The translations under genes and the position numbers were made by a program. Below are positions 11,682-60,449 of a stretch of DNA of 64,000 nt, piece by piece; the stretch's first letter is position 1, and every line of letters begins with the position of its first letter. The stretch comes from Sorangium aterium (GTDB lineage Bacteria > Myxococcota_A > Polyangia > Polyangiales > Polyangiaceae), in NCBI RefSeq assembly GCF_028368935.1, contig NZ_JAQNDK010000004.1, positions 1,054,001-1,118,000 of the forward strand, given 5' to 3'. The notes below the pieces were generated by a model. That model ran no database searches, was not told the DNA's origin, and saw nothing but the letters and a program-made list of their open reading frames with translations.

Positions 11682-13526
11682 TCACAGCAATCCTGCGCCG
11701 GCCCAGAGCCCGGGCTCGTACGCCACGAGCGCGTCCACGTCGTCCGAGGCGAGCACGAGGAAGCTCAGCGGAGAGAAGCCGAGGAGCAGGTGCGAGGTGA
11801 TCGGGAACTGGATCCCCCACCCGAAGCGAGCGCCGAAGGCGCCCACGCTCTCGAAATAGGGGGAGTCGAAGAAGATGCGGTGGTAGCCCGGCGTGATCCC
11901 GACCGACATCTCGACGTGCGACCCGACCCCCATCACGAGCCGGAGCGGCGCGCCCACCGCGAGCTGATTGACGTCGGTGGTCGAGACGGTCCGGAGCTCG
12001 ACGCCGACCTCGAAGCGGCGCGTCTCGCTCAGGCGGAGGCGCGCGAGGACGTCGAGATCCACGGACATCCCGTCCTTCACCGCGAAGCGCCCCGGCACGA
12101 AGTAGCCGGAGATCCCGAGCGAGAGCGCCATCCTCCGCGCGTTGGCCTCCACCTGGTGACCCGTCGCGGGCTCCTTCGCGGCGGGGCCTGGCGGCGTATC
12201 CGGGGTGCGCCGCTCCGGCTGCGTGGCAGCCGCGGGCGAGGGAGGGGGGGACGCGGGGTATCCGCCCGTCGGCGGCGGGTAGGGGTAGGGCGGGGGGTAG
12301 CCGCCTGCGGGCGGCGGGTAAGGGTAGGGCGCGGGGTAGCCGCCCGCGGGCGGCGGCGGGTAGGGGTAGGGCGCGGGGTAACCGCCTGAGGGCGGCGGGT
12401 AAGGGTAGGGCGCGGGGTAACCGCCTGAGGGCGGCGGGTAAGGGTAGGGCGCGGGGTAGCCGCCCGAGGGCGGCGGGTAGGGGTAGGGCGCGGGGGGCCC
12501 GCCAGGAGGCGGCGCGTACGGGTGGGGTGTCGGAGCCGGCGACGGCCTCTGAGCAGGCGCTGGGGCCGGTGCTGAGCTCGCCGCCGCGGGCTTCGCCGCC
12601 TCGGGCTTTGCTGGCGCGGGCGGCGCGGGGCGAGCCGGCTGGGCCTCGGCCTCGCCCGCGGCGAGGCTCAGGAAGGCGAGCGCCACCAGCGCGGGCGCCA
12701 CGGCGGCGGCGCGCCGCGCTCGCAGCGCGCGGCGCGCCAGCACGGCGGCCGCCGCGAGCCCCAGCAGGAGCGCCAGCGAGACGAGCTGGCCAGTGCTGAG
12801 CCCCCCGTACACGCCGCGCCCGGCGTCCCCTCGGAGGAGCTCGATGAAGAACCGGCCCGCCGCGTAGAGCGCGAGCCATGTCCCGAACGCGCGCCCGTCC
12901 CGGTGCCCCCGGACGAGCCAGAGGGCGGCGATCGCGCTCGCCATCGCCCCGAGCGCCGCCTCGTAGAGCTGCGTGGGGTGCACGGGCAGGCTCGGCGCGC
13001 CCAGGGGCACCCAGCCGGCCGCCGCGTGGTCCGCCGCCGCGGGGCTGCCGGCGGGGAACCGGACGCCCAGCGCGCCCCCGGTGACGCGGCCGTAGTCGCA
13101 CCCCGCGAGGAAGCACCCGGTGCGCACGCAGGCGTAGGTGATCCCGAGCCCGGGCACGAGCCGGTCGAGGAACGGGAGCACGGCCGCGCCGCTCCGGTAG
13201 AGGACCAGGCCGGCCACGGCGACGCCGGCGATGAGGCCCCCGTAGGCGGCGCGGCCGGCGTGGAGCATCGGACCCCACGAGCCCCCCGCGAGCGCCTCGG
13301 GCGCGGCGCGCAGCGCCTCGAAGACGTAGCCGCCCAGGAGCGCCGCGACGTAGCCCGAGAGGAGCGCGCGGCCCTCCACGGTCCCATCCCCCCGATCCCG
13401 GCGCACGAGCCAGAAGAACGCCGCCGCCCCGAGGAGCCCCGCGGCGGCGACCATCACCGCGTAGGTCGGCGCGAGCCACGGCGGCAGGCCGTGGCGCTCG
13501 AGCCAGAGCATCACCGCCCGGTTCAC
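11682..13526 (-). CDS. Divergent Lgt-like membrane protein fused to Pro-rich repeats and an outer-membrane barrel
   Basis: This is an uninterrupted 614-codon frame. Residues 1-270 are a polytopic membrane domain of the prolipoprotein diacylglyceryl transferase family: VRTGCFLAGCDYG (130s) aligns with the Lgt signature and keeps its Arg, HPTQLYEA (183-190) and GRFFIELLRG (224-233) are also conserved. The catalytic His of canonical Lgt appears to be Tyr95 (AAYGGLIAG), and the signature Asn is Cys138. A second signal-peptide-like stretch ends AAGEAEAQ near 296. Then come six to seven copies of PAPYPYPPPSGGY and a C-terminal region (about 435-614) with beta-barrel-like alternation. The GTG start overlaps the upstream lipoprotein stop (GTGA). 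It may be a specialised lipidation enzyme joined to an envelope protein, or two genes fused by loss of a stop. Confidence 0.75.
   Translation of the reverse strand: MNRAVMLWLERHGLPPWLAPTYAVMVAAAGLLGAAAFFWLVRRDRGDGTVEGRALLSGYVAALLGGYVFEALRAAPEALAGGSWGPMLHAGRAAYGGLIAGVAVAGLVLYRSGAAVLPFLDRLVPGLGITYACVRTGCFLAGCDYGRVTGGALGVRFPAGSPAAADHAAAGWVPLGAPSLPVHPTQLYEAALGAMASAIAALWLVRGHRDGRAFGTWLALYAAGRFFIELLRGDAGRGVYGGLSTGQLVSLALLLGLAAAAVLARRALRARRAAAVAPALVALAFLSLAAGEAEAQPARPAPPAPAKPEAAKPAAASSAPAPAPAQRPSPAPTPHPYAPPPGGPPAPYPYPPPSGGYPAPYPYPPPSGGYPAPYPYPPPSGGYPAPYPYPPPPAGGYPAPYPYPPPAGGYPPPYPYPPPTGGYPASPPPSPAAATQPERRTPDTPPGPAAKEPATGHQVEANARRMALSLGISGYFVPGRFAVKDGMSVDLDVLARLRLSETRRFEVGVELRTVSTTDVNQLAVGAPLRLVMGVGSHVEMSVGITPGYHRIFFDSPYFESVGAFGARFGWGIQFPITSHLLLGFSPLSFLVLASDDVDALVAYEPGLWAGAGLL
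12236..12515 (-). repeat. In-frame tandem repeat coding PAPYPYPPP-SGGY units
   Basis: The stretch consists of about six units of 39-45 bp, each a variant of GGCGGGTAAGGGTAGGGCG on the plus strand, read on the minus strand as Pro/Tyr/Gly-rich units. Because the unit is a multiple of three it stays in frame. It should give an extended, flexible periplasmic spacer between the membrane domain and the barrel-like region. Copy number is likely to vary between strains. Confidence 0.8.
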
Positions 13527-26099: not shown

Positions 26100-26105
26100 G
26101 CTGGC

Positions 26106-26260
26106 AACCGGGGACGGTTGTGGCCGGGAGGCCGACCATGGTTCTGGCAACCGGAACCGGTTATGGGCAGGCAGCCGAAAGCGAGCATGATGATCCCTGC
26201 CGGAACGTCCGGTGTGTTCCGGGCGTTCACATCCTATCCAGCGCGGGGGTAGGGGGGATA
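26106..26260. repeat. Palindrome-repeat element, short form (two sites plus tail)
   Basis: The element holds AACCGGGGACGGTT at 26106-26119 and AACCGGAACCGGTT at 26149-26162, 43 bp apart. A tail at 26176-26260 contains the inverted repeat GCCGGAACGTCCGG and a G-rich TAGGGGGG end. The same components in the same order occur at 34666-35240, where the palindrome part is expanded to seven sites. Both copies lie between divergent genes, here the spondin lipoprotein and the TIGR03118 protein. Confidence 0.75.
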
Positions 26261-26677
26261 GCGGTGCCGAGCCGTCGAGATCTGGCATTTTTGCCGGGAT
26301 TTCGGAGGAGCGTCACGAGACGACGGATCGCACCTCCTCGGAAACATGGATCCAACCCGGGCCCAGCCGCCGACGCCCGAGCCTGGAGAGCGCGCCGTGC
26401 TGAAGCGCCCCCGGCGAAGGCTCACCGCTCCGTCGAAACGGATCGTCCGCCTTGCTGCTCCGCGGTGGGTCACCCGCGGTCGCGCATCGCGTGGTCGAAC
26501 CGGCTATCGCTCCTGGCATACGGATGTCGTAAGCGACATTCGCGCGCAGGAGTATCGGTGATTCCCGCTTGACGGGGAAGTCTCATCAGGTCTTAGTAGA
26601 GCGCTCCTGGAGCTTTTGTGCGGTGGGGCGATTATCCGTTCGCTCTGCCGTTGGCCTCTCGGAGCGGGGGGACACAC

Positions 26678-31985: not shown

Positions 31986-33122
31986 TCAGTAGGTGGCCGT
32001 AACGCCTAGCCCGACAGCTGTGCCGAGCGGCGAGGAGGACCAGAAGAGTGGCGCTGGCGTCGCAGTGTCGTACGACATGCGCATGAGCGCCGCGTCCTCC
32101 ACGATCCACGTCGCCTCGGCGTAGCCACGCGCGGACCACGTGCGGGAGAGCGGCCACTCGGCACCGAGCCGCGCCCCGAAGCCGAAGATGGCGTCGCTGC
32201 GCCGGCGCATGGTCCACGGGGCGTGAGGGGTGAATCGGACAGTGCCGATCGTGGCCAGTCCGCAGCCGAACAGGAGGAGGTGGTGGTAGCAGGCCACGGT
32301 AGCCGTCGTGAACGACGTGGTATCGACCATCGTGCCTTCCACCTCCTGCACCAGGGAGATGAGCCCGCGCCCCTCCACCGCGATCGACCATGCGGGCCGG
32401 CGAACGCCAAACGCCAGCGTCATCCCGGTCGCAGGCCCCGGGGTGGTCCCGAGGCCCAGGGTCGCCCCGAGCCCCGCTTCGAGCCGCAGCGGCTCCGGCG
32501 GGGACGGGGCCGCCTCCGGCGGTGTTGGCACCTTCGGATGTTCGGCCCGGCGCACTGGCTCCGGCGCCGCCCGGCGCGCCCGCGAAAGCGGCGGTGAAGG
32601 CGGCGCTGAGGGCTCGGGCTCCGGCGAGGCCTCGGAGGGCGGTGGCGCCCGCTCCGGCATGTTCAGGATCTGCGCCACGATCGCGAGGGCCGCGCCGGAG
32701 AGCAGCGCCTCGCAGCCGTTCCGGGTGCCGAACCCCTCGGCCCAGATGGTATCGCCCGCGCTCTCGCTCCCGCGCAGGGCCATCGAGGCCGTGAGCTCCG
32801 GCCCTGCCTGCGCAATGGTGACCGTGAGCACCCGCGGCGCGTCGTCCTGGAAGGGGTCGGCGCCGAGCCCGCGCGCCACCTCTGCGCGCAGGAACGCCTC
32901 GTCGCCGCAGGCTTGGGCGCCAGGGCCCCGCACGACCTCGAGCCGCATCGCAGCCGGTCGCAGCTCCGGCGCGGCGCGGGCTGCCGCGACGCAGAGCAGG
33001 ACCGTGGTGGCCATGGCCGCCGCCACGGCGGCGCGCGCCGGGCGCCCGGCGCCCCGGGTCGATCCGGCAGCGCACCGGGCGTGGCGCGCGCCGAGCCCGT
33101 GTCTGGGCCTGGTGCAGCTCAT
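31986..33122 (-). CDS. Putative outer-membrane protein coupled to the sigma-factor gene
   Basis: This 378-residue protein has an N-terminal region with a likely signal segment (MATTVLLCVAAARAAP near residue 37). A domain of about 110 residues follows (RLEVVRGPGAQACGDEAFLRAEVARGLG), with two Cys. A Pro/Glu/Ala linker (about 160-205) leads to a C-terminal half with beta-barrel-like strands ending LGTAVGLGVTATY, an outer-membrane-type aromatic terminus. The arrangement is frequent in myxobacterial genes placed directly after an ECF-type sigma factor. The ATG overlaps the sigma stop by ATGA. It may be the product the sigma system senses or exports; that is inference. Confidence 0.65.
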   Translation of the reverse strand: MSCTRPRHGLGARHARCAAGSTRGAGRPARAAVAAAMATTVLLCVAAARAAPELRPAAMRLEVVRGPGAQACGDEAFLRAEVARGLGADPFQDDAPRVLTVTIAQAGPELTASMALRGSESAGDTIWAEGFGTRNGCEALLSGAALAIVAQILNMPERAPPPSEASPEPEPSAPPSPPLSRARRAAPEPVRRAEHPKVPTPPEAAPSPPEPLRLEAGLGATLGLGTTPGPATGMTLAFGVRRPAWSIAVEGRGLISLVQEVEGTMVDTTSFTTATVACYHHLLLFGCGLATIGTVRFTPHAPWTMRRRSDAIFGFGARLGAEWPLSRTWSARGYAEATWIVEDAALMRMSYDTATPAPLFWSSSPLGTAVGLGVTATY

Positions 33123-34486
33123 CGCGACGGCGCTCCTCCCGGCGCCCTCTGCTCGGGAGGAGCGAGGCGTGCTCGGCCGACGGTGCGGAGCCGCTCCCGC
33201 ACGCCCGTCAGCCGGCCTGCGGGGAATCGCGCCTCGTGTGCGGCGAGCAGCCGGAGCGCCCCGGCGGGATCACCGGCCGAGAGGCGTTCTCGCGCTGCGG
33301 AGAGCAGCCGGAGCTCCTCCGCGAAGGTGTCCTCCCGCTCGCCGGCCGGTGCTGCCGCCCGCGGCGCGGCAGGGCACGGGCGCGGGAGCGCCTCGGCTGC
33401 GGGAGCCACGGGCGCTGGCTCCGGTGTCTGCTGCTGGGGCGTCGGTGCAAGGCAGGCGCTGCTCGCGGGCGGCGGCTCGGGCAGCAGCGCCTCGAAGCGC
33501 CGAGCCCAGTGGGCCGGCGGTGACGCGAGGGCGAGCTGCACGGCGATCGTACCGGCGACGCCTGCCGCGACCGTTCCGAGGTAACGGCCGACCCGAGCGA
33601 GCGTCCGCCGGAGGCTCGATGTCGCCGGCGTCTGCGGCAAGGGCGCCGTAGGCACGGGCCGAGCAGAGGCAGGGGGCACCGGCGGAGCTGGCGGCGGTGT
33701 GGGCGGAGCAGGTGCCGGCGCTGTCGGCGGAGCAGGGGGAGACGGCGCCGGCGGGGCGGCCGGCGGCACCGAGGCGCCCGCGCCGTCGTCGCGCACCAGG
33801 GAGTCGGACGCCAGCGGGAACAGGAGCCAGCAGGCGCGCAGCGCCTGTCGCTGCTCCGGGCGCAACCGCGCGACGGCGGCGCGGTAGTCCTCGCGGGCGA
33901 GGCGCAGCCGGTTGCAGGCGGTGTTGTAGTTGATGCCGAGCATGCGCGCGATCTCCACGACCGGCACGTCGAACGCCTCGTGCAGGACGAGGAGGATCCG
34001 CCGCTCGGGCGCGATCGTGCCGAGCACCGCGATCGCGAGCTCCAGCCGCTCTCGGCCCGCGACGCGCTGCTCGCTGCTCGGCGCGGGATCGACGGCCTGC
34101 TCGTGCGGCGCGGGGTGCAAGCCCGTCGGCACCTCGCGGCGGCGGTAAGCGCGGTCCAGGTAGCGGCTGACCTTCCGCCAGGCGATCCCGAACACCCACC
34201 GGGCTTCCGCGCTGCCTTGCTGGCGCCTGCCCTCCCGCGGCGGCGGATCGCCGGCGGAGTCGGCCTCCTCCAGCGGCGCCGAGGTGGAGGCGGGGAAGGC
34301 GGGATCGAACCGATCCAGGCTCTCGTACGCCGCGAGCAAGATCTCCTGGAACAGGTCGTCGATATCGGGTTCGGAGACCCCCAGGAGCCGGAGCACGCTG
34401 GGGAGGATGTCCACTGCGGCAGCGTGAACGGAATTCCATGTCGCGTTGCGGGAGGTGTCGTGGGCGGGCGAAAGGAGGGTGCTCAT
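33119..34486 (-). CDS. ECF-like sigma factor fused to a membrane segment and C-terminal TPR-like tail
   Basis: This 455-residue protein combines an RNA polymerase sigma factor with an anchor. Region 2 lies at about 12-60 (SEPDIDDLFQEILLAAYESLDRFDP). An acidic/variable spacer follows, then region 4 at about 145-210, with the helix-turn-helix VVEIARMLGINYNTACNRLRLAREDY. Next is a Pro/Ala linker of about 60 residues, a hydrophobic helix (YLGTVAAGVAGTIAVQLAL) and a tail with EELRLLSAARERLSAGDPAG, a TPR-like unit common in myxobacterial anti-sigma proteins. So sigma and anti-sigma-like parts appear joined in one chain. The start at 34486 follows AAAGGAGGG on the opposite strand poorly; the frame is open further 5'. 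It is preceded by the palindrome array. Confidence 0.8.
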   Translation of the reverse strand: MSTLLSPAHDTSRNATWNSVHAAAVDILPSVLRLLGVSEPDIDDLFQEILLAAYESLDRFDPAFPASTSAPLEEADSAGDPPPREGRRQQGSAEARWVFGIAWRKVSRYLDRAYRRREVPTGLHPAPHEQAVDPAPSSEQRVAGRERLELAIAVLGTIAPERRILLVLHEAFDVPVVEIARMLGINYNTACNRLRLAREDYRAAVARLRPEQRQALRACWLLFPLASDSLVRDDGAGASVPPAAPPAPSPPAPPTAPAPAPPTPPPAPPVPPASARPVPTAPLPQTPATSSLRRTLARVGRYLGTVAAGVAGTIAVQLALASPPAHWARRFEALLPEPPPASSACLAPTPQQQTPEPAPVAPAAEALPRPCPAAPRAAAPAGEREDTFAEELRLLSAARERLSAGDPAGALRLLAAHEARFPAGRLTGVRERLRTVGRARLAPPEQRAPGGAPSR

Positions 34487-34665
34487 ATCCAGAATTGCGG
34501 CGGGATTTCCGGTTCCGTTTGAGAAAATGCACGGCCCGGTGCGTGGCGTGGGGCGCCGGCGCGCCCGGCCGTCGCGCTTGCGGCCGAATGCGGCCGGAGG
34601 CGACCCGCTGAGCGTCCTCCGGGACACGGGAAGCAGCGTGGCCGGGCAGCTGCGCATGCCCCGGC

Positions 34666-34935
34666 AACCGGGGATGGTTGCGGCCGGAAAGCCGACCAGG
34701 CTTCCGGCAACCGGATCCGGTTACGGGCAGGCAGCTGGGCAGCCTCGGGAAACCGGATCCGGTTACGGGCAGGCAGCTGAGCAGCCCTCGGGAAACCGGA
34801 TCCGGTTACGGGCAGGCAGCTGGGCAGCCCTCGGGAAACCGGATCCGGTTACGGGCAGGCAGCTGGGCAGCCCTGGGAAACCGGAGCCGGTTACAGGCGG
34901 GCAGCTGAGCAGCCCTCGGGGAACCGGATCCGGTT
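34666..34935. promoter_or_regulatory. Array of seven palindromes at 42-43 bp spacing
   Basis: Sites start at 34666, 34709, 34751, 34794, 34837, 34879 and 34922. Five read AACCGGATCCGGTT, a perfect 14-bp palindrome; the first is AACCGGGGATGGTT and the sixth AACCGGAGCCGGTT. All fit AACCG-N4-(C/T)GGTT. Between them each unit repeats ACGGGCAGGCAGCTGGGCAG. A degenerate eighth begins at 34965. Spacing of 42-43 bp is about four helical turns, so all sites face one side of the DNA. The array is 180-450 bp upstream of the sigma-factor start. It could be an operator array or an expanded intergenic repeat. Confidence 0.75.
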
Positions 34936-35152
34936 ATGGGCAGGCAGCCGAGCAGCCCTCGCACAACCGGACTGCCCGAGCCTGTAACTTTCCACCATTC
35001 AGGTCCCGTACACCGCCCGTCCCGCGGGACGCCAGGCGCGCGAGACGACGATAGGGCAGCCCCCCTTCGACTCGCAGGCATGGATGCCCTTGAGCAAGAT
35101 TACGACGTTGAGGGGCACGCGCTCTGAAAATCATCCGGCTGATGAATTGACA

Positions 35153-35240
35153 CGAAAGCGAGCATGATTACCCCTGCCGGAACGTCCGGCGTGTGCTGGG
35201 CGTTCACATCACATCCAGCGTGGGGGGTAGGGGGCATGGC
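35153..35240. repeat. Tail of the palindrome-repeat element, long form
   Basis: This segment matches 26176-26260 closely (CGAAAGCGAGCATGAT, GCCGGAACGTCCGGC, then a G-rich end). In the short form it follows the last palindrome directly; here about 190 bases intervene. It ends 53 bp before the start of the gene at 35294. The 190 intervening bases show no supported gene. Confidence 0.7.
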
Positions 35241-35293
35241 ATATCCATTCTTTCGCCGCTCCGCGACGGACATCAACGAGAGGTAATCCCCTC

Positions 35294-36238
35294 ATGGCCA
35301 GACCGTTCTCGAACAAGAAAAAGGCAGCTCCCAAGAAGCCCGCGACCCCGCTCCAGGCGGCGAAGGCGTTCGACAACGCCCTCCGCGAGATCGAGGCGCT
35401 GAGCGCGGATCGGCTCATCACCATCAACCTCGATATCCCGCGCGTCGTCTCTCAGGTGCTTGGCGTGCTGCCCGGCCTCCTCGCGCTGCGACCCGCCGTC
35501 GCCGAGCACCTCCATAAGCATGATGTCGCGCTGCTCGACAGGCTCGAGACCTACGCGCTCGCCGCGTGGTACGCGCACCTCCTGTGGCTGTCCAGCGAAG
35601 GCGCGGAGAACGCGCTGAAGCCGCTCCTCGAAGAGGCCGTCCCGCTCCGCGAGAACCTGCTGAGCGACGCCGAGGCGCTGGCCCGCCGTGGCCTGCTCGA
35701 CGCGGAGACGGTCGCGGAGATCCGCGCAGGGCAGGGGCACATCGATACGGCCAACGATCTCGTGGCGCTCTCGGCGCTGTTCAGCGGGAGCTGGCCGGAG
35801 ATCGCCGGAAAGACGGCGGCGACCGAGGAGGAGGTGCGCCGCGCCGGAGAGATCGGGCCGCAGCTCCTCGCCTCCCTCGGCGTGAGGGAGCACGGCAAAG
35901 GGCCTGGGCCCACCGAGGCGGCGGACAAGCGAGCGCGCGCGTTTTCGCTGCTCGTTCACGCCTACGATCAGACACGCAGGGCCGTCGCCTACCTCCGCTG
36001 GAACGAGGGTGACGCCGACGCGATCGCGCCGTCGCTGTACAAGGGCCGCGGCGGTCGCTCCGCGTCGTCGAGCGATACCGCCGCAGCCCCGGAGGACGCC
36101 GCCACGGCTGGTCCGACGGCGCCGGCATCGCCGGGCGCCGCGCCTCCGGTGGTGCCGCGAAGCCCGGCTGCACCGGCGGCGCCCGGCGCGGCGGCGTCCG
36201 GCCCAGCACCCAACGGCGCGCCGCCCCTCCTCGCCTAG
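35294..36238 (+). CDS. Conserved helical protein of unknown function
   Basis: This 314-residue protein has a basic N-terminus (NKKKAAPKKPATPLQAAKAF), then an almost entirely alpha-helical body to about residue 250 with Leu/Ala heptads. An Ala/Pro-rich disordered tail of about 60 residues closes it. No enzymatic motif, signal peptide or transmembrane helix is seen. Similar basic-start, helical, Ala/Pro-tail proteins are frequent in large myxobacterial genomes, but I know no function. The upstream repeat-element tail ends close to its start. Confidence 0.65.
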   Translation: MARPFSNKKKAAPKKPATPLQAAKAFDNALREIEALSADRLITINLDIPRVVSQVLGVLPGLLALRPAVAEHLHKHDVALLDRLETYALAAWYAHLLWLSSEGAENALKPLLEEAVPLRENLLSDAEALARRGLLDAETVAEIRAGQGHIDTANDLVALSALFSGSWPEIAGKTAATEEEVRRAGEIGPQLLASLGVREHGKGPGPTEAADKRARAFSLLVHAYDQTRRAVAYLRWNEGDADAIAPSLYKGRGGRSASSSDTAAAPEDAATAGPTAPASPGAAPPVVPRSPAAPAAPGAAASGPAPNGAPPLLA

Positions 36239-59728: not shown

Positions 59729-59794
59729 CGGCGGAGGCGCATCCACGAGCGGACGCCGGAAGCTGGTAACGCGTCACCTGAGTTCGTCACTGGC

Positions 59795-60075
59795 TGTGAG
59801 AGAGGTGTTGCCGAGACGCCTGGCCCCCGGAGGGGGTGCTCGTCGCGCGGGCGCGGGGTGGGGCCCCGCCGAACTCGGTCCCTGGATGTGAGCGAGGTGT
59901 TGCCGAGACGCCCGGCCCCCGGAGGGGGTGCTCGTCGCGCGGGCGCGGGGTGGGGCCCCGCCGAACTCGCCTGAGCCCTCTCTCCTCCGGCAGAGCCGGA
60001 GGCGAGAGGGCTCAGGCTCAGACATCGGCCCATCCCCACCCCGCGCCCGCGCGACGAGCACCCCCTCCGGGGGCC
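59795..60075. repeat. 92-bp-spaced direct repeats with an inverted third copy
   Basis: 59795-59877 and 59887-59969 are near-identical direct repeats (GTGTTGCCGAGACGCC, then GGCCCCCGGAGGGGGTGCTC and so on). The inner 42 bp recur inverted at 60034-60075. The inverted pair flanks the strong hairpin at 59969-60017, so the transcript could fold as a large nested stem. It follows the NOS gene. Confidence 0.8.
59969..60017. terminator. Long hairpin downstream of NOS
   Basis: A 23-bp stem with one mismatch: CTGAGCCCTCTCTCCTCCGG at 59971-59990 pairs with its complement ending at 60015, with loop AGA. It lies about 240 bp after the NOS stop and inside the larger inverted repeat. There is no T-tract, so it may be an intrinsic-like or a processing/stabilising structure. 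Confidence 0.6.
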
Positions 60076-60125: not shown

Positions 60126-60445
60126 ACACGGGCGGACATGCGCGAGGGGGGGCGGAGGGGGTACGCGACGGATCGAGTGAGCCGCGAGGGGGTGGCGGAG
60201 GGGGGGCGCAACGGATCGAGTGAGCCGCGAGGGGGTGGCGGAGGGGGGGCGCAACGGATCGAGTGAGCCGCGAGGGGGTGGCGGAGGGGGGGCGCAACGG
60301 ATCGAGTGAACCGCGAGGGGGTGGCGGAGGGGGTACGCAACGGATCGAGTGAACCGCGAGGGGGTGGCGGAGGGGGGTGCACAACGGATCGAGTGCGCCG
60401 CGAGGGGGTGGCGGAGGGGGGTGCGCAACGGATCGAGTGCGCCGC
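60126..60445. repeat. 43/44-bp tandem array, about seven units
   Basis: CGGATCGAGTG starts at 60169, 60212, 60255, 60298, 60341, 60385 and 60429; each unit is 43-44 bp and includes CCGCGAGGGGGTGGCGGAGG. Because 43 is not a multiple of three, it is not a coding repeat. The first units are nearly identical and later ones drift (TGAGCC, TGAACC, TGCGCC), indicating slippage growth. It ends at the broken kinase gene. Confidence 0.85.
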
Positions 60446-60449
60446 GACA

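What the first reader, a model, noticed from the sequence alone, without database searches (positions are those of the whole stretch)
34666..34968. Helically phased palindrome array ahead of a membrane-linked sigma factor
Seven copies of AACCG-N4-(C/T)GGTT (mostly the perfect palindrome AACCGGATCCGGTT) recur every 42-43 bp, i.e. about four helical turns, in the divergent promoter region between the sigma factor (33119-34486) and the gene at 35294. The between-site sequence is also conserved, so this is a tandem duplication of a 43-bp unit, but the phasing would place every palindrome on one face of the DNA. That is what an oligomerising dimeric regulator would need. It could equally be an expanded intergenic repeat.
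Basis: partly seen in the sequence, partly recalled or inferred. Interest (0 to 1): 0.75.

Follow-up and report, generated by a model that had tools for sequence, protein, structure and literature searches.

The report
Four-turn palindrome arrays beside sigma genes
A short stretch of DNA in a soil bacterium (Sorangium) repeats a pair of mirror-image sites every 42-43 letters, about four turns of the helix, and the same kind of array recurs beside two gene families in related genomes, which suggests an undescribed docking platform for a regulatory protein.

Summary
In detail: seven AACCG-N4-YGGTT palindromes at 34666-34935, spaced 42-43 bp. Each unit also holds a second palindrome, GGCAGC-N2/3-GCTGCC, centred 21-21.5 bp from the first, so dyads fall every two helical turns. 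The array is one of a dispersed Sorangium family: five multi-unit arrays found in this genome, matches in 6 of 6 genus genomes. It lies upstream of 13 of 13 near-full-length close relatives of gene 35294-36238 and of 6 of 9 close relatives of the sigma gene, once as a single unit. Two other clades of the 35294 protein family carry arrays of different unit sequence but the same 43-bp period, while two clades lack them. Palindrome arms mutate less than linkers within arrays (A arms in 28 of 30). Best reading: a phased multi-dyad binding platform (sopC-like in geometry) for a sigma-factor/helical-protein module; the binder is unknown. Against it: 19 of 35 arrays have neither close partner gene, some lie between convergent genes, and shared descent explains part of the linkage.

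The parts
34666..34978 (.). Array of seven 42-43 bp units plus a half site; palindrome A (ACCG-N4-CGGT) and palindrome B (GGCAGC-N3-GC(A/T)GCC, imperfect here) alternate with centres about 21.5 bp apart
33119..34486 (-). Sigma-70 family factor (regions 2 and 4) with a Pro-rich linker and a hydrophobic stretch that looks like a membrane helix (by eye); the array begins 180 bp upstream of its ATG
   Evidence: Pfam PF08281 5.1e-8 and PF04542 4.1e-5; relatives and their arrays
35294..36238 (+). Gene of the associated all-helical protein family (subfamily I), Lys/Pro-rich N-terminus, no Pfam, NCBIfam or PHROGs match
35147..35174 (+). Conserved TTGACA-N16-TACCCC box between array and gene 35294 (promoter-like, read by eye from the alignment)
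   Evidence: alignment of 13 upstream regions; the simple sigma-70 scan did not report it
35177..35204 (+). Conserved CCGGAACGTCCGG palindrome, also readable as an ECF-type promoter GGAAC-N17-CGTT (promoter type recalled)
   Evidence: GGAAC-N17-CG[TC]T in 9 of 13 upstream regions
34487..34560 (-). Conserved leader of the sigma gene between its ATG and the array
   Evidence: alignment of 6 sigma loci
26105..26163 (+). Degraded two-copy array of the same family
26181..26268 (+). Remnant of the gene-35294 promoter region behind the degraded array, without a detectable 35294-type gene
   Evidence: nhmmer E 1.3e-13, BLASTN; no protein match there

Best explanation
The array is a phased multi-dyad DNA-binding platform. 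Palindromes A and B alternate every 21-21.5 bp (two helical turns), so the dyads of an array face nearly the same way, and a dimeric DNA-binding protein can load side by side and form a large complex. In the window it lies upstream of both divergent genes, the sigma factor and the helical-protein gene, and is inferred to control both (silencing or autoregulation; the direction is not known). Shown: anatomy, fixed period, constraint on the arms, dispersal, recurrent position upstream of these two gene families. Inferred: that a protein binds it, that binding is cooperative, that it controls transcription. Not known: the binder. The helical protein is the candidate I favour, because array type changes with protein clade while the period stays.
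For: Fixed period: 205 of 227 spacings in 37 arrays are 42/43. Constraint: mismatch to array consensus 0.028 in A arms and 0.037 in B arms against 0.089 in linkers; A arms lower in 28 of 30 arrays (p 6e-8), B arms in 26 of 30 (p 1.6e-5); the A centre is not clearly constrained (22 of 30, p 0.07). A arms keep their letters, not only their pairing: 3 of the 4 A pairs have no two-sided change in 62 units, as expected of protein recognition. Lone strict sites number 4 against 4 in the control, so the array itself matters. Array upstream of 13 of 13 near-full-length subfamily I genes in six genomes and of 6 of the 9 sigma loci with E 1e-90 or better, one as a single unit. Sigma and helical-protein genes are also neighbours elsewhere (L141; L183 and L184; sigma remnant in L063). 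Other clades: 4 of 4 subfamily III and 5 of 5 subfamily Vb loci, each a supported clade (1.0 and 0.988), have 43-bp arrays of different unit sequence. 23 of 34 family loci hold an array of period 40-45; a random 6.6-kb stretch of contig C4 holds a 42/43 array with probability 0.037. 33 of 35 arrays do not overlap a predicted gene at all.
Against: No binding or expression data. Subfamily IV has no array (0 of 6), nor has subfamily II (0 of 1); in Va (L179-L182) only L180 has one, of 2.0 copies and downstream. Three of nine close sigma loci, one of them in this genome, lack a type I array. 19 of 35 arrays have neither a near-full-length 35294 relative nor a close sigma relative beside them (16 if distant sigma-like genes and one gene fragment count), and 5 of the 23 non-family arrays lie between convergent genes. 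Gene, promoter and array may have been copied together, so the 13 of 13 are not 13 independent events. The predicted protein has no recognisable DNA-binding fold. The tandem-repeat finder sees only regular arrays, which favours a fixed period.
Confidence: 0.48

Rival explanations
1. A self-maintaining intergenic repeat (satellite or BIME/REP-like element) without a role at these genes. It expands and homogenises by unequal recombination and travels with duplicated genes.
For: Units are near-identical within an array and diverged between arrays. Arrays without a partner gene occur in all gene orientations. Paralogues share promoter region and array, as copying together would give. The So ceGT47 loci L061 and L063 look like a split of the window arrangement with both junctions at an array, as recombination between arrays would give. 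Non-coding tandem repeats of C4 peak at 42/43 in general (10 of 38 with period 30 or more), including a second dispersed 43-bp family.
Against: Arms mutate about 2.4-3.2 times less than linkers within arrays. Period is kept through strong sequence divergence. Only five multi-unit arrays found in 13.5 Mb. Clade-specific array types.
Confidence: 0.27
2. A centromere-like or chromosome-organising site, working like sopC of plasmid F: tandem 43-bp repeats with an inverted repeat, loaded by a ParB-like protein.
For: Geometry: parS of F is twelve 43-bp tandem repeats with ten 16-bp inverted repeats bound by ParB (passage of PMC6238139). Arrays are intergenic, spread over the chromosome, also in convergent gaps.
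Against: No ParA/ParB gene showed up as a constant neighbour among the 25 neighbouring or window proteins scanned; one array (L059) lies beside an ArsA-like ATPase. Several sites per genome, tied to particular gene families.
Confidence: 0.13
3. RNA-level element: the array is transcribed and its hairpins act as attenuator, terminator or sRNA.
For: A units can form 4-5 bp stems with GNRA-like loops in many arrays (by eye). In one search the covariation score was reached by 1 of 500 shuffles and the number of cells with two-sided changes by 0 of 500 (but the number of pairs with such a change by 186 of 500).
Against: The array lies upstream of the conserved promoter-like region of gene 35294. 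The strand of the GNRA form flips between loci (by eye). Mismatches do not favour G-T over A-C in B arms (20 against 23 in family arrays on the gene strand; 37 against 58 elsewhere, strand arbitrary); A arms lean to G-T (13 against 5; 21 against 13). An RNA does not need a fixed 42-43 nt period.
Confidence: 0.06

Closest known systems
sopC / parS of plasmid F (SopB/ParB centromere)
   Same: Tandem direct repeats of 43 bp, each with an inverted repeat; twelve in F (passage of PMC6238139), two to thirteen A sites here
   Different: Chromosomal, several per genome, two palindromes per unit, no constant parA/parB neighbour seen, tied to a sigma/helical-protein gene pair
REP / BIME elements
   Same: Extragenic palindromes, palindromes alternating in tandem (abstract of PMC2817692 as listed; arm/linker contrast recalled)
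   Different: REPs are usually over 100 copies per genome (same abstract); here five multi-unit arrays; a RAYT neighbour was not looked for
Operators built of serial palindromes, such as RptR
   Same: A small helical protein encoded next to a series of palindromic direct repeats in its own promoter (passages of PMC12255303)
   Different: RptR sites are three 9-bp repeats over the -10 box; here seven 42-43 bp units lie upstream of the promoter-like region
Plasmid iterons (recalled, no call)
   Same: Helically phased tandem sites for a replication protein
   Different: Period about twice that of typical iterons; no replication gene seen at the window array

Membership tests
sopC/parS-type centromere | 43-bp tandem repeats each with an inverted repeat | tested here: met
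   reference geometry
sopC/parS-type centromere | Bound by a ParB-type protein encoded with a ParA in cis | tested here: inconclusive
   Pfam scan of 5 window proteins and of 20 neighbours of other arrays showed no ParB; one ArsA/ParA-like ATPase at L059; not every neighbour was scanned
sopC/parS-type centromere | Confers stable partition | not testable with these tools
   needs experiment
REP/BIME | Extragenic palindromes in tandem or alternating arrangement | tested here: met
REP/BIME | High copy number (over 100 per genome) | tested here: not met
   five multi-unit arrays and three lone or short matches at E up to 0.01 (150 of 31,055 candidates scored)
REP/BIME | RAYT transposase | not tested
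   not searched
CRISPR array | Identical repeats with unique spacers | tested here: not met
   between-site sequence repeats too
ECF-type sigma factor (gene 33119-34486) | Sigma-70 regions 2 and 4 only | tested here: inconclusive
   PF08281 above its cut-off (32.9 against 25.7), PF04542 just below (23.7 against 24); TIGR02937 35.1 bits, below its cut-off 42.9

The most novel reading that the evidence does not exclude
A family of myxobacterial helical proteins, several of them partnered with membrane-linked sigma factors, carries its own DNA arrays: the sequence of the unit changes from one protein clade to the next while the period stays at 42-43 bp, four helical turns. That would be a set of orthogonal protein/array pairs in which geometry, not sequence, is the conserved signal.
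Probability: 0.28. Interest if true: 0.82.

Novelty: new variant of a known kind. Interest (0 to 1): 0.62.

Why it matters
Arrays with a fixed four-turn period, recurring with three different unit sequences beside clades of one gene family, would be a natural test of how helical phasing is selected. They also give a handle on a protein family without known function that has matches in 25 of 60 sampled genomes of its taxonomic family, up to 13 per genome, and on a linked group of sigma factors in natural-product-rich bacteria. I saw no description in the listings of eight searches of the open library (each shows only its best 6-20 papers, some out of hundreds or thousands); subscription papers were not covered.

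Tried and rejected
Array as an operator of the sigma gene alone: rejected, because the 35294 gene family has the array in 13 of 13 near-full-length loci, and in 9 of these 13 no sigma-like frame lies beside it (only window, L063, L065 and L141 have one). Array inside the mRNA leader of gene 35294: not favoured, since the conserved promoter-like boxes lie between array and gene. CRISPR: rejected, the spacers repeat. Mobile origin on plasmids: tblastn of the 35294 protein against 72,556 plasmid records gave no match. Function of the helical protein by fold: AlphaFold model pLDDT 76.5, pTM 0.66; no Foldseek PDB match at E 0.001 or better, VIA-align best Z 7.3 (metavinculin tail; vinculin and talin bundles follow), which is not informative for a helical bundle; no PDB sequence match at E up to 1. 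Sigma-70 promoter scan of 34400-35400: none found. So0157-2 genome paper (PMC3696898, passages only): the passages mention CRISPR repeats; 'tandem' does not occur in its main text. The 42-bp repeats near family genes in three loci outside Sorangium (L175, L178, L187) have reading frames open through them, so they may be coding and are not counted as support.

Weak points of my own counts. Arrays were found by BLASTN with the window array, by a covariance model built from 62 units of these arrays, or by TRF beside family genes, so the set leans to regular arrays. The promoter model was built from the 13 regions that it then finds; only the remnant at 26181 is an independent hit. In one search, 30 of 37 arrays had a usable 42/43-bp consensus; 7 were dropped. 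In one search units were picked by their A sites, which favours conserved A arms; one search does not pick that way. In one search arrays at contig ends and single units were left out. Clades III, IV, Va and Vb were named after I had seen which loci carry arrays; the tree then gave III (support 1.0), IV (1.0), Va (0.996) and Vb (0.988) as separate clades, while subfamily I as a whole had only 0.497 (0.979 with the array-free L176). The two non-I array types are called different, not unrelated: the type I model gives weak matches to type III units (L080, L151, E about 0.05). Gene calls in scripts come from a simple codon-usage caller of mine, not from an annotation. The genome screens scored at most 150 candidates per genome or 92. 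The 42/43 peak of non-coding repeats was seen in C4 of this genome; in 400 kb of So0157-2 the one long array near that period had 44. The comparison with another genus could not be made.

Full report
What is there. The window carries seven AACCG-N4-YGGTT palindromes at 34666-34935, spaced 42 or 43 bp, with a half site at 34965. The unit is longer than the palindrome: a second inverted repeat, GGCAGC-N2/3-GCTGCC (imperfect in the window), lies half a period away. By eye, units of 43 bp mostly have N3 and units of 42 bp mostly N2 in that second site, with centres 21.5 and 21 bp apart. The array sits between a sigma factor gene (33119-34486, minus) and a gene of unknown function (35294-36238, plus).

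Where else. The genome (13.47 Mb, 7 contigs) belongs to Sorangium: three genus mates have the exact contig lengths of So ce26, So ceGT47 and So0157-2. A covariance model of the unit finds five multi-unit arrays in this genome and three lone or short matches at E up to 0.01, and matches in 6 of 6 genomes of the genus. By BLASTN the array was found in 3 of 5 other genus genomes and in none of 53 outside the genus. With the model, of 60 genomes of the taxonomic family all 3 Sorangium genomes matched and, of the other 57, one had a single borderline match at 8.3e-5. The spacing is fixed: 205 of 227 spacings between recognised A sites in 37 arrays are 42 or 43 bp. Singles of the strict palindrome are at chance level.

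What it lies beside. The 35294 protein belongs to a multi-copy family with no Pfam, NCBIfam or PHROGs match (one member, L088, had a sub-threshold Pfam match at E 0.03). In six Sorangium genomes, 13 of 13 near-full-length members with at least 71% identity have an array upstream, and one truncated member (L084) has one about 1 kb away. Fragments at G005:C330, G000:C2:702k and G000:C4:797k are not in this count; L090, the second of these, has none. Between array and gene is a conserved region with TTGAC-N16-TAnnCC and CCGGAACGTCCGG, the latter readable as GGAAC-N17-CG(T/C)T in 9 of 13. The sigma factor is a second such family. Nine loci match it at E 1e-90 or better (next best 7e-58, a second piece of one of them). 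Six have the array upstream: window, L263, L264, L269, L270 and, as a single unit, L271. L268 in this same genome, L265 and L266 do not. Nineteen more distant sigma loci gave one weak match, L289 at E 0.007. Three further arrays lie beside distant sigma-like frames (L065, L142, L146) and one beside a sigma remnant (L063). At L265 and L266 the sigma gene stands directly behind a member of the helical-protein family (coordinates), and that pair has its own 43-bp repeats upstream (L184, L183). In L141 the order is array, subfamily I gene, one unit, sigma gene.

Other clades of the protein family. Subfamily III (about 50% identity): 4 of 4 loci have 43-bp arrays of a different unit (GGGCGGTC-CG-ACCGCCC), one upstream and three downstream of the gene. 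Subfamily Vb (36-38%): 5 of 5 have 43-bp arrays with TGACACTACGTGTGCCC upstream, 2.3-3.7 copies. Subfamily Va: 0 of 4 upstream, one (L180) with 2.0 copies of 42 bp downstream; an own-genome relative, L094, has 2.1 copies of 42 bp upstream. Subfamily IV: 0 of 6. Subfamily II: 0 of 1. Minicystis rosea: 0 of 1. A tree of the 34 loci and the window protein separates III, IV, Va and Vb with support 0.988-1.0, so arrays mark three clades with array-free clades between them. In three of five further loci outside Sorangium (L175, L178, L187) a 42-bp repeat lies 0.05-2 kb from the gene, but frames are open through all three, so they may be coding. In all, 23 of 34 family loci hold an array of period 40-45, these three included. 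A random 6.6-kb stretch of C4 holds a 42/43 array with probability 0.037. The 34 loci include the same clades repeated across strains, so they are not independent.

Constraint. With units aligned to each array's own consensus, mismatches are 0.028 in A arms, 0.037 in B arms, 0.068 in the A centre, 0.058 in the B loop and 0.089 in linkers. A arms are below linkers in 28 of 30 arrays and B arms in 26 of 30. A repeat without any function would not be expected to show this. The A arms keep their letters, which fits protein recognition better than a hairpin. Mismatch types do not favour an RNA clearly: G-T against A-C is 20 to 23 in B arms and 13 to 5 in A arms of the family arrays, 37 to 58 and 21 to 13 elsewhere.

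Against a simple operator. Of 35 arrays with genes called on both sides, 12 belong to subfamily I genes. The other 23 lie between co-directional (12), divergent (6) and convergent (5) genes; one of the convergent ones, L154, lies at the truncated family gene. Background gaps of 300 bp or more are 164, 122 and 31. Four of the 23 lie beside a close sigma relative (L061, L138, L144, L147), leaving 19 with neither close partner. Neighbours of such arrays are varied: an M28 peptidase cluster, a sigma-54 activator, a cytochrome c, a kinase, a GTPase (20 neighbours scanned). Arrays at the peptidase cluster are at the same place in three strains. So the array is more than the operator of one gene, or it is partly a spreading repeat.

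How it may work. I take it as a platform of phased dyads for a dimeric binder. The favoured candidate is the helical protein, because array type follows protein clade, but this is inference: its fold gives no hint and a Lys-rich tail is all that speaks for DNA contact. The nearest known thing by geometry is sopC of plasmid F, twelve 43-bp repeats with inverted repeats (passage of PMC6238139). I do not file it there, since no ParB partner was found among the proteins scanned. The nearest by genome habit are BIMEs, which differ in copy number.

Verdict. Observation confirmed; interpretation partly supported and widened. The chance of a real binding platform is about one half; the main rival is an expanding repeat. 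The most novel reading, protein clades each with its own array sequence but one common period, is open and testable.

Noticed in passing
60141-60447: A second 43-bp tandem array with a different unit (7.1 copies, CGCGAGGGGGTGGCGGAGGGGGTGCGCAACGGATCGAGTGAGC). It is also a dispersed family: matches in 6 of 6 Sorangium genomes, periods mostly 42-44, with a recurrent site next to the same 275-aa and/or 263-aa genes in L252, L254, L257 (= L261), L258 and L260.
   Followed up: partly
G000 contig C4 (L096-L135, L190-L229 and the window): Non-coding tandem repeats of period 30 or more peak at 42/43 bp: 10 of 38 in 1.66 Mb, several with different units (for example C4:335550, 484158, 1439372).
   Followed up: partly
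26105-26268: Degraded two-unit array fused to a remnant of the gene-35294 promoter region: a lost copy of the module, 8.6 kb from the main array.
   Followed up: partly
L061 (5894-7722) and L063 (3925-7572): In So ceGT47 the window's arrangement appears split: array plus sigma gene at 8.27 Mb, array plus helical-protein gene (with a sigma remnant) at 0.32 Mb. Arrays may be rearrangement points.
   Followed up: partly
L141, L142, L146, window: Pairs of arrays (some partners a single or short array) lie about 5-9 kb apart at four places although arrays are few per genome.
   Followed up: no
12252-12527: 39-bp tandem repeat of seven copies, period a multiple of three and probably coding.
   Followed up: no
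59786-59969: 92-bp direct duplication (two copies, 95% matches) just before the second 43-bp array.
   Followed up: no
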